Positions 23,407 through 44,327 of a stretch of DNA of 44,415 nucleotides are shown here, piece after piece (within the stretch, counting starts at the first letter, position 1; each line of letters begins with the position of its first letter). The notes beneath the pieces were generated by a model. That model worked only from the letters and a program-made list of their open reading frames with translations. It had not been told where the DNA came from and did not search any database. Position numbers and translations under genes: made by a program. This DNA is from Candidatus Omnitrophota bacterium. GTDB lineage: Bacteria; Omnitrophota; Gorgyraeia; Gygaellales; Profunditerraquicolaceae. Where the stretch lies: NCBI GenBank assembly GCA_028717245.1, contig JAQUOD010000006.1:51846-96260 (forward strand), read 5' to 3'.

Positions 23407-24619
23407 AGGTTTAATTGTGCAAAAGTTCGGCGGATCATCCGTGGCTAATATTGAGCGCATACGGAATGTGGCCAAAAGAGTTGTAAATTACAGGAAGAAA
23501 GGATACGATTTAGTGGTCGTGGTTTCTGCCTTGGGAGACACTACAGATGAATTAATAGGACTGGCAGCCCGGATTAATACCGAACCCTCGGAGCGGGAGA
23601 TGGATATGCTTTTATCCACCGGAGAGCAGATTTCTGTGGCGCTTCTGGCTATGGCCATCCATAAATTAGGGTTTGAAGCCATATCTTTTACCGGAGCGCA
23701 GGTGGGGATAATCACCGATACCAGCCACACCCGCGCCAGGATTATAAAAATAAATACCGATAAAATAAAAGAAGAATTGAAACGGGGCAGGATTGTGATT
23801 GTTGCTGGTTTTCAGGGTGTCGCCCTGAATCAGGATATTACTACTTTAGGCAGGGGCGGTTCGGATTTAACTGCCGTGGCCCTGGCAAAGGAACTGAGGG
23901 CGCGCGAATGCGAGATATACACCGACGTAGAGGGGATTTATACGACGGACCCGCGCATAGAGTCTAAGGCAAAAAAAATTAAGGCCATAACTTATGACGA
24001 AATGCTGGAGATGGCGTCATTGGGCGCTCAGGTGATGCAGGCGCGCTCCATTGAAGTAGCTAAAAAATTTGACGTGCCTATACATGTGCGTTCATCTTTC
24101 TTAGATAAGGGCGGGACAATGATTATTAAGGAGGTCAAGAGGATGGAAGAGGTAGTGGTCAGCGGCATAACCGCAAATAAAAACGAAGCAAAGATTACGG
24201 TCTGCGATGTCCCTGACCGGCCGGGTGTGGCAGCGAGGATATTCAAGGAATTATCCGGCAAGGGGATAAGTGTGGATATGATTGTGCAGAATGTCAGCCA
24301 TACGCGTCAGACTGATATCTCTTTTACGGTAAGTAAGGCAGAGTTGCGCAAGGCGCTAAGGATTACTAAAAAAATAGCCGGAGGCATTAACACCGGGGAT
24401 GTCCTGGAAGATCAGAATATAGCCCGTATATCCATAGTAGGTGTAGGTATGAAGTCTCATCACGGTGTTGCCGCTACCATGTTCGGGGCCCTGGCGGAAA
24501 ATAAAATTAATATTGAGATGATTTCTACTTCCGACATAAGTATATCCTGTATTATACAGAAGAAATTTGCTGAAACTGCGGTGAAGGCGTTACACGAGAA
24601 GTTTGGATTAGCAAAATAG
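23399..24619 (+). CDS. lysC: Aspartate kinase
   Basis: 406 aa. KFGGSSVANIERI at residues 8-20, VVVVSALGDTTDEL, LGRGGSDLTAVALA and YTDVEGIYTTDPRI define the kinase domain; two ACT domains follow (KITVCDVPDRPGVAARIFKEL and ISIVGVGMKSHHGVAATMFGAL), so lysine/threonine feedback is expected. First step of lysine, threonine and methionine synthesis. It starts inside the end of cstA behind AGGAG. Its TAG stop is part of the outer arm of an imperfect REP-like palindrome. Confidence 0.96.
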   Translation: MHKGLIVQKFGGSSVANIERIRNVAKRVVNYRKKGYDLVVVVSALGDTTDELIGLAARINTEPSEREMDMLLSTGEQISVALLAMAIHKLGFEAISFTGAQVGIITDTSHTRARIIKINTDKIKEELKRGRIVIVAGFQGVALNQDITTLGRGGSDLTAVALAKELRARECEIYTDVEGIYTTDPRIESKAKKIKAITYDEMLEMASLGAQVMQARSIEVAKKFDVPIHVRSSFLDKGGTMIIKEVKRMEEVVVSGITANKNEAKITVCDVPDRPGVAARIFKELSGKGISVDMIVQNVSHTRQTDISFTVSKAELRKALRITKKIAGGINTGDVLEDQNIARISIVGVGMKSHHGVAATMFGALAENKINIEMISTSDISISCIIQKKFAETAVKALHEKFGLAK

Positions 24620-24691
24620 GGACGGTTCTCAATTACGGTAAGAACTGTCCCCCATAGGGACACTTTTCGGTTAGGTTGAGAACCGTCCCTA
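24617..24691. repeat. REP-like palindromic element containing the lysC stop codon
   Basis: TAGGGACGGTTCTCAA (24617-24632) and TTGAGAACCGTCCCTA (24676-24691) are perfect reverse complements, 16 bp. The 43-bp interior contains CTGTCCCC and an inner TGTCCC/GGGACA hairpin, words shared with the coding palindromes in folP and valS. Such GGGACGGTTCTC elements resemble targets of REP-associated tyrosine transposases; no transposase gene is in the window. Confidence 0.88.
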
Positions 24692-34834: not shown

Positions 34835-35090
34835 TTATTTGTTGTAAATCGCTAAGTTATTTTTTAGCGGGCGGCTTGGTTTGTTTTTGAACAGCATATA
34901 GTTTATGCGAGCGTTATTTATAATGTCCAGCGGGTGACGCGGGGGATGCCTCGAGGAAAATTTGACGAGAGGCTCACCACGCGGTGAGGACCCGCTGCTT
35001 TGTATGAGGGTAAAATTAAAGCGGTGCTGCGAGAAAGCAAGACAAGACAGCCGCTAAAGTGGTATCTATGATAAATCTTACAACAAATAA
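34835..35090 (+). ncRNA. Candidate structured RNA, copy 1 (upstream of groES)
   Basis: TTATTTGTTGTAA (34835-34847) pairs perfectly with TTACAACAAATAA (35078-35090) and closes a 256-nt region. Inside, TTTAGCGG/CCGCTAAA (34863-34870 with 35051-35058), CTTG/CAAG and CAGCGGGT/ACCCGCTG (34928-34935 with 34990-34997) form further stems. A block at 34890-34913 matches the copy at 43961-43984 (other strand) in 21 of 24 positions, and AGCGGTGCTG plus GAGAAA (35020-35036) is also shared. No known family fits in my reading. No gene is seen in 34807-35264. Confidence 0.68.
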
Positions 35091-35102: not shown

Positions 35103-35130
35103 TTGACAAAATATTTTTTTCTTTTATAAT
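35103..35130 (+). promoter_or_regulatory. groES-groEL promoter
   Basis: TTGACA (35103-35108), 16-nt spacer, consensus TATAAT (35125-35130). Confidence 0.9.
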
Positions 35131-35156
35131 TAGCACTCTGTAGAAAAGAGTGCTAA
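35130..35156 (+). promoter_or_regulatory. CIRCE operator (HrcA binding site)
   Basis: TTAGCACTC-N9-GAGTGCTAA, a perfect CIRCE element that begins on the last base of the -10 box. It shows that groESL is repressed by HrcA and induced by heat or misfolded protein. hrcA is not in the window. Confidence 0.97.
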
Positions 35157-35247
35157 TTGAGTTCATTGAGTTCATAGAGTTTGTAGGGTTTATTGAGTTT
35201 GATAACTCAAAGAACTCAAGTAACTCAAAAAACTCAATTAACTCAAA
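35157..35247. repeat. Nonamer array and its reverse complement in the groES leader
   Basis: Five 9-nt units of the TTGAGTTCA type (35157-35201) are followed, after one base, by five units of the TAACTCAAA type (35203-35247). They would fold into a long hairpin in the groES 5' UTR just before AAGGAGG. Same family at 40288-40369. Confidence 0.9.
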
Positions 35248-35264
35248 ATAAGGAGGTGTAAGAG

Positions 35265-37350: not shown

Positions 37351-37376
37351 AGAAGGGACAGGTACAATCTCAGTTC

Positions 37377-37412
37377 CGCACCAGGTGCAAAGCTAATCGG
37401 GCACCTGGTGCG
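37377..37412. repeat. Double palindrome upstream of guaB
   Basis: CGCACCAGGTGC (37377-37388) and GCACCTGGTGCG (37401-37412) are perfect reverse complements, and each arm is itself a palindrome around one base (GCACC-A-GGTGC). This is the same design as the GGGAC-W-GTCCC elements with other letters; 12-nt interior. No T tract follows on either strand, so it is not a terminator. Confidence 0.8.
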
Positions 37413-37422
37413 AAAATAATTA

Positions 37423-43821: not shown

Positions 43822-44033
43822 CAGTTTTCTCGCTTAACAAGGTAGTGGGTCCTGTCAAGGCTATTTTCTCCAGCACCGCTCCAAATTCCCCATCGAGGAA
43901 TTTGTCGCTTGGAGTTTGTGCTCACTCTCACTGACTTTGTATTAGCAGGTGAACCCTGGCCGTTCGCACAAACTACATGCTGTTCGAAAACAGCCTTGCC
44001 ACCCACTAAACCCTTACGTTAGCTCGAAAACTG
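43822..44033 (-). ncRNA. Candidate structured RNA, copy 2 (downstream of dnaE)
   Basis: Homologue of the RNA at 34835-35090, on the opposite strand. A closing stem joins 44026-44033 to 43822-43829 (CAGTTTTC/GAAAACTG on the RNA strand), and AGTGGG pairs with CCCACT (44007-44002 with 43849-43844). A CTGTT-TTCG-AACAG hairpin is followed by GCATG-TAGTT-TGTGC, where copy 1 has GCATA-TAGTT-TATGC. The stem is kept by G-U pairs only if the - strand is the RNA. A variable AAATTCC/GGAATTT hairpin (43883-43903) replaces different hairpins in copy 1. Confidence 0.62.
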
Positions 44034-44070
44034 CCAGATGCATCATTTAGCGGATAGCTAGAATTGATAA

Positions 44071-44247
44071 ATTTTAGTGTTTTGCTGGAGCGTGCATTAG
44101 AAAATCTTTGGCAGGAGTGCACAAGGGATTACGTCGAGCGAAAGCCGAGCAACCTACTCTTACCCGGGTAAGGCTCGAGCGACAGCGAGACGTAAACCGC
44201 AGTGCGTCAGCAAAGATTTTCAGCACGCGGAAGCGAAACGCTAAAAT
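44071..44247 (+). ncRNA. Rod-shaped RNA, candidate 6S RNA
   Basis: A 177-nt region folds end to end. ATTTTAGTGTTTTGCT (44071-44086) pairs with 44232-44247 over 16 positions including two U-G pairs, which fixes the + strand. GCGTGC/GCACGC, the 11-bp GAAAATCTTTG/CAAAGATTTTC, then an internal loop (44111-44128 opposite 44196-44210), then TTACGTC/GACGTAA, CGAGC/GCTCG and a CTTAC/GTAAG tip follow. Length, a central asymmetric bubble about 40 nt from the 5' end and 50 nt from the 3' end, and the long closing stem match 6S RNA. No sequence signature was checked. Confidence 0.55.
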
Positions 44248-44327
44248 AATAACCCAAGGCAGCCGTTAGAGAGCATATGAATTTTTACCATAAAGTAAAA
44301 TATCTTTCGCACTTTTGATATTGCCAT

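What the first reader, a model, noticed from the sequence alone, without database searches (positions are those of the whole stretch)
34835..35090. Long structured RNA before groES, homologous to one after dnaE
A 256-nt region closed by a perfect 13-bp stem lies upstream of the groES promoter. It shares a 24-nt block (21 identical, all differences transitions) and a second block (AGCGGTGCTG, GAGAAA) with 43822-44033 on the other strand, in the same order and spacing logic. Coding potential is absent. I could not match it to RNase P, tmRNA, SRP or 6S RNA. It may be an undescribed RNA class.
Basis: partly seen in the sequence, partly recalled or inferred. Interest (0 to 1): 0.78.

Follow-up and report, generated by a model that had tools for sequence, protein, structure and literature searches.

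The report
Dispersed pseudoknotted hairpin repeats of Omnitrophota
The two structured stretches are not a pair of RNA genes but two worn copies of a mobile-looking DNA repeat, present at about 45 places in this one small genome and found across the bacterial phylum Omnitrophota, whose single strand folds into an elaborate, evolutionarily conserved shape; what spreads it and what it does are unknown.

Summary
Both regions are copies of a ~170-nt element (34862-35058 +; 43841-44011 -), at about 45 places in a 1.61-Mb genome. The family occurs in 128 of 285 sampled genomes of the phylum, patchily. No Rfam family matches. 115 aligned copies show very strong covariation (48 of 52 pairs changed on both sides), a three-way junction, conserved tandem G.A motifs and a loop-loop pseudoknot absent from the search model. 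So a single strand, RNA or ssDNA, is selected to fold.

It behaves as a dispersed repeat: orientation relative to genes is random; the groES copy is absent from 29 relatives' groES loci; near-identical copies sit at unrelated loci; all 15 close pairs are head-to-head doublets.

Best explanation: a non-autonomous REPIN/MITE-like mobile element whose folded strand is recognised by an unidentified enzyme. RAYT/Y1, TnpB-type and IS110 genes do not account for it. 'Undescribed RNA class' is partly supported; a groES/dnaE link is not. Transcription is untested.

The parts
34862..35058 (+). Element copy 1 (degenerate): outer stems P1/P2 of the family; the P3-P4-P5 lobe is replaced by a short hairpin element
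   Evidence: cmsearch R2 48.2 bits, E 3.2e-10; R1 62.4 bits
34835..35090 (+).
   Evidence: read from sequence; fold z -4.85
34928..34997 (+). Short (A-type) hairpin element CAGCGGGTGACGCGG...GAGGACCCGCTG nested inside copy 1; 14 copies aligned in this genome
43841..44011 (-). Element copy 2 (full length, B-type), antisense to dnaE and starting 34 nt after its stop codon; the middle pair of its pseudoknot is mismatched (GCC / GAT)
   Evidence: R2 170.0 bits, E 2.5e-40
44012..44046 (-). Spacer of a head-to-head doublet, holding the recurrent C motif CTCGAAAACTGCCAGAT (written as on the + strand)
44047..44274 (+). Remnant of the doublet partner (TTAGCGGATAGC...CCAAGGCAGCCGTTAGA); not detected by the covariance model, read by eye
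44071..44240 (+). A further hairpin repeat (D-type) inside the partner remnant, with copies of up to 97% identity elsewhere in the genome
35103..35130 (+). groES promoter TTGACA-N16-TATAAT, downstream of the element
   Evidence: read from sequence
35130..35156 (+). CIRCE-type HrcA operator TTAGCACTC-N9-GAGTGCTAA
   Evidence: read from sequence; same motif in many groES loci of relatives

Best explanation
It is a non-autonomous, dispersed (mobile) element of Omnitrophota, about 170 nt, often arranged as head-to-head doublets. SHOWN: it is multi-copy and patchily distributed; near-identical copies lie in unrelated surroundings; its single strand has a conserved fold (P1/P2 stem, three-way junction, arm P3/P4 with a GGSCANGG internal loop, hairpin P5 whose loop pairs with that internal loop, tandem G.A steps). 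INFERRED: an enzyme supplied in trans recognises this folded strand, as ssDNA during replication or as a transcript, and copies it into intergenic, often already palindromic DNA, giving nested hairpins. Copies decay after insertion, as both window copies have. No groES or dnaE function is implied.
For: About 45 places in the own genome; hits in 35 of 58 relatives and 128 of 285 phylum genomes, 0 to tens of copies. Copies 99% identical over 230-240 bp in unrelated flanks in one relative, and 100% over 143 bp with different termini in another. Orientation relative to co-directional genes 40 sense, 52 antisense. groES site without the element in 29 relatives' loci. All 15 close pairs head-to-head. 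Covariation score 0.547 against 0.169 shuffled; pseudoknot pair 74-208 GC 62 / CG 29 with at least 6 flips on a tree.
Against: No target-site duplication was found and no transposase was identified: Y1_Tnp numbers do not follow copy numbers, TnpB-type genes are absent from nine high-copy genomes, and IS110 is in one of nine. No exact empty site at the base level was obtained. Some copies share a neighbourhood between genera (ruvB-queH, folD-metF, panE, mreB-aroA), which could mean old retained copies with a function, although orientation differs between genomes at some of these sites.
Confidence: 0.62

Rival explanations
1. A multi-copy family of true non-coding RNA genes with a host function, amplified in some lineages: the transcript folds into the pseudoknotted three-way junction and acts in trans.
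For: RNA-like features: covarying pseudoknot, invariant unpaired GGSCANGG/GA and tandem G.A; shared neighbourhoods in some genera.
Against: Random orientation, copy number from 0 to tens, absence from more than half of the genomes, and degenerate copies look like a repeat, not a gene. Transcription not tested.
Confidence: 0.2
2. Pure DNA palindromes: nested inverted repeats whose arms are kept complementary by template switching during replication, with no selection on a folded strand.
For: Few G.U pairs (6.7% of MFE pairs, against 9.8% in RNase P RNAs of the same group); outer stems differ between copies with identical cores yet stay self-complementary in some of them; template switching can make such changes in one step (PMC8794818).
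Against: It does not predict covarying pairing between two non-adjacent loops, nor invariant unpaired letters and conserved G.A mismatches.
Confidence: 0.1
3. A guide-type RNA of an RNA-guided mobile system (HEARO/omega-RNA-like, or an IS110 bridge RNA), left as solo copies.
For: Structured, mobile-looking and multi-copy, as HEARO is said to be (PMC9755519 links HEARO RNA to IscB-type nucleases).
Against: No Rfam HEARO match; TnpB-type domain absent from nine high-copy genomes and IS110 in one of nine. IscB itself was not searched for. No gene family recurs beside the copies except shared housekeeping neighbours and an ORF6N-like gene.
Confidence: 0.04
4. A cis-acting leader or attenuator of groES (and of dnaE).
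For: Position only.
Against: It ends before the groES promoter and CIRCE; not found at 29 relatives' groES loci; the dnaE copy is antisense and downstream.
Confidence: 0.01

Closest known systems
REPINs / BIMEs (REP doublets mobilised by RAYT)
   Same: Extragenic, high copy, palindromic, singlets and inverted doublets with a spacer, dispersed (PMC3116915)
   Different: Units are ~170 nt rather than 20-40 nt, with a three-way junction and pseudoknot; not linked to RAYT genes: the two Y1 genes of this genome carry other flanking repeats and two high-copy relatives have none
MITEs and ERIC/Correia-type intergenic palindromic elements
   Same: Short, non-coding, terminal inverted repeats GCGGGT..ACCCGC, nested insertions
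   Different: No target-site duplication detected; more elaborately structured than plain terminal-repeat elements (comparison from general knowledge)
HEARO / omega RNA (RF02033)
   Same: Structured RNA-like element spread as a mobile element
   Different: No match in Rfam searches; no TnpB-type gene in nine high-copy genomes; IscB not searched
Rickettsia palindromic elements
   Same: Palindromic dispersed repeats confined to one bacterial lineage
   Different: Those enter coding and RNA genes (general knowledge); these are mostly intergenic; no relation tested

Membership tests
REPIN/RAYT system | Copies organised as inverted doublets | tested here: met
   15 of 15 close pairs head-to-head, spacers 20-80 nt
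REPIN/RAYT system | Cognate RAYT (Y1_Tnp) in genomes with many copies, flanked by the repeat | tested here: not met
   Relatives with 21 and 25 copies have no Y1_Tnp match; own Y1 genes carry other flanking repeats
REPIN/RAYT system | REP unit of 20-40 nt | tested here: not met
   Unit ~170 nt
MITE of a DDE transposon | Terminal inverted repeats | tested here: met
   GCGGGT..ACCCGC, with covarying outer pairs
MITE of a DDE transposon | Target-site duplication | tested here: not met
   Matching flanks near the chance level for lengths 1-12; element ends may be misjudged where nested
MITE of a DDE transposon | An autonomous relative with the same ends | not tested
Any Rfam family, HEARO included | Covariance-model score at the curated threshold | tested here: not met
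HEARO/omega RNA | Linked IscB/TnpB-type nuclease | tested here: inconclusive
   PF07282 absent in nine genomes; IscB not searched
Structured RNA class | Conserved secondary structure with compensatory changes | tested here: met
   pseudoknot and P5 pairs were not in the model that made the alignment
Structured RNA class | Transcription as RNA | not testable with these tools
   No expression data available

The most novel reading that the evidence does not exclude
A new class of mobile structured nucleic acid: a pseudoknotted three-way-junction RNA or ssDNA that is itself the recognised form of the element, spreads through a whole phylum as head-to-head doublets and nests in other hairpins, through a mobilising enzyme not yet described.
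Probability: 0.33. Interest if true: 0.85.

Novelty: new variant of a known kind. Interest (0 to 1): 0.66.

Why it matters
Dispersed bacterial repeats are usually short plain hairpins or transposon remnants. A 170-nt repeat with a covarying tertiary contact, conserved across a phylum of largely uncultured bacteria, makes the question of what recognises folded single strands to spread repeats directly testable. It also supplies a covariance model for annotating Omnitrophota genomes, where these stretches could otherwise be mistaken for RNA genes or regulatory leaders.

Tried and rejected
Known RNA families: none. RAYT/Y1 as mobiliser: own genes have other repeats, and presence does not follow copy number. 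Reverse transcriptase: the one RVT_1 match looks like a diversity-generating retroelement (Avd-like ORF plus RT, judged from sequence) and is unlinked. TnpB-type and IS110 families. Insertion into RNase P RNA genes: no element there. Plasmids and phages: no match; three viral contigs share a short motif but not the element. Recurrent gene beside copies: only shared housekeeping neighbourhoods and an ORF6N-like gene. Strand asymmetry of folding as proof of RNA: about 60% of it is reproduced by shuffled sequences of the same composition, so not used. Literature searches found no earlier description in the open-access papers held, which is not proof that none exists.

Full report
What was checked. 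The region reads as described: a 13-bp perfect closing stem, the 24-nt block shared with the opposite strand after dnaE, and the second shared block. Both stretches fold well below shuffles and no Rfam family is near. The neighbours are groES, groEL and dnaE by Pfam.

It is not a two-copy RNA. The 256-nt query has 41 matches in the 1.61-Mb genome and the dnaE-side copy has 28. Aligning about 20 of them gave a ~170-nt element (B-type), plus a ~70-nt short form with the same ends (A-type). A covariance model (R1) finds 48 matches, about 45 distinct places, in the own genome. It finds copies in 35 of 58 related genomes, and the refined model R2 finds them in 128 of 285 genomes drawn from the phylum (at most nine candidates were scored per genome there, so copy numbers are floors). 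Named hits are all Omnitrophota (one pattern scan only). The pattern is patchy: close relatives range from none to tens.

The window copies. Copy 2 (43841-44011, minus strand) is full length (170 bits). Copy 1 (34862-35058) is a shell: its P3-P5 lobe is gone and an A-type hairpin sits at 34928-34997 (48 bits). A second locus in the genome has the same shell-plus-A build at 77% identity with different flanks. Next to copy 2, across a 35-nt spacer, a partner remnant (44047-44274) carries yet another hairpin repeat (D-type, 44071-44240), itself multi-copy. The locus is therefore a set of nested repeats.

Structure. 115 aligned copies keep 92% of cells paired; 48 of 52 pairs show changes on both sides; the covariation score is 0.547 against 0.169 in shuffles and at most about 0.10 for slid partners. 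The alignment was fitted to R1, which favours R1's pairs, but several well-supported pairs were not in R1: 44-185 and 45-182 at the junction, the P5 stem, and the pseudoknot 73-75 with 207-209 between the P4 internal loop and the P5 hairpin loop. At its centre GC occurs 62 times and CG 29 times, both states occur within single genomes, and a tree needs at least six flips. Unpaired letters of the GGSCANGG loop, three G.A tandem sites and single invariant bases are conserved while stems vary freely. This argues that one folded strand is under selection. It does not tell RNA from ssDNA: G.U pairs are fewer than in RNase P RNAs of the same group (for the RNase P set), and the strand asymmetry of folding energy is mostly compositional. 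Template switching, which makes compensatory changes in one step (PMC8794818), may account for part of the stem covariation but not for the loop-loop pairing. In the window, copy 2 itself has a mismatch at the pseudoknot centre (GCC / GAT) and copy 1 lacks it.

Behaviour. Orientation relative to co-directional neighbour genes is 40 sense and 52 antisense (crude ORF calling). The groES-upstream copy is found only in the own genome among 30 groES loci. In one relative three copies agree at 99% over 230-240 bp in different surroundings; in another, two copies have identical 143-bp cores but different termini, one pair of termini being a perfect 10-bp self-complement. All 15 pairs closer than 150 nt are head-to-head with spacers of 20-80 nt (pairs collected). 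No target-site duplication was detected. Some neighbourhoods recur across genera (ruvB-queH, folD-metF, panE, mreB-aroA), with orientation differing at some, so either sites are permissive or some copies are old.

What mobilises it is open. RAYT/Y1 genes do not follow copy number and the own Y1 genes carry other flanking repeats. TnpB-type genes are absent in nine high-copy genomes and IS110 is in one of nine. The only RT found looks like a diversity-generating retroelement.

Comparison. REPINs (PMC3116915) share the dispersed, extragenic, inverted-doublet arrangement, but the unit size and the RAYT link fail. MITEs share terminal inverted repeats, but no target duplication was seen. HEARO (PMC9755519) is a structured RNA spread with a nuclease; no Rfam match and no TnpB-type gene was found here, and IscB was not searched.

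Verdict. It is filed as a new variant of dispersed palindromic repeats that is arranged like REPINs but fails two REPIN criteria, with the open possibility that it is a new class of mobile structured nucleic acid.

Noticed in passing
window 44071-44240: A separate ~170-bp hairpin repeat (D-type), with copies of up to 97% identity at several loci of the genome and a diverged one in a relative.
   Followed up: partly
window 24617-24690: Repeat shared with the flanks of a Y1 transposase gene (GGGACGGTTCTC / AAAGTGTCCCC type), i.e. a RAYT-type REP, unrelated to the element studied.
   Followed up: no
window 37353-37420: Inverted repeat (GCACCAGGTGC type) shared with the flanks of the second Y1 gene.
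   Followed up: no
window 35157-35250: groES 5' leader made of repeated GAGTT.. then AACTC.. words that can form a long hairpin between CIRCE and the start codon.
   Followed up: no
L140 6-1715: Avd-like ORF followed by a reverse transcriptase, probably a diversity-generating retroelement in the own genome.
   Followed up: no
L093, L113, L116, L143, L194: ORF6N-like protein genes near element copies in five genomes; chance association not excluded.
   Followed up: no
L234, L247, L249, L252, L257: RNase P RNA matches in Omnitrophota vary from 332 to 562 nt, so several carry insertions; not this element.
   Followed up: partly
L030 796-1015: A B-type copy carries a further palindrome (TTCGACTTCGCTCAGGGCTCGTCCTGAGCTTGCCGAAGG type) inside its P5 hairpin.
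   Followed up: no
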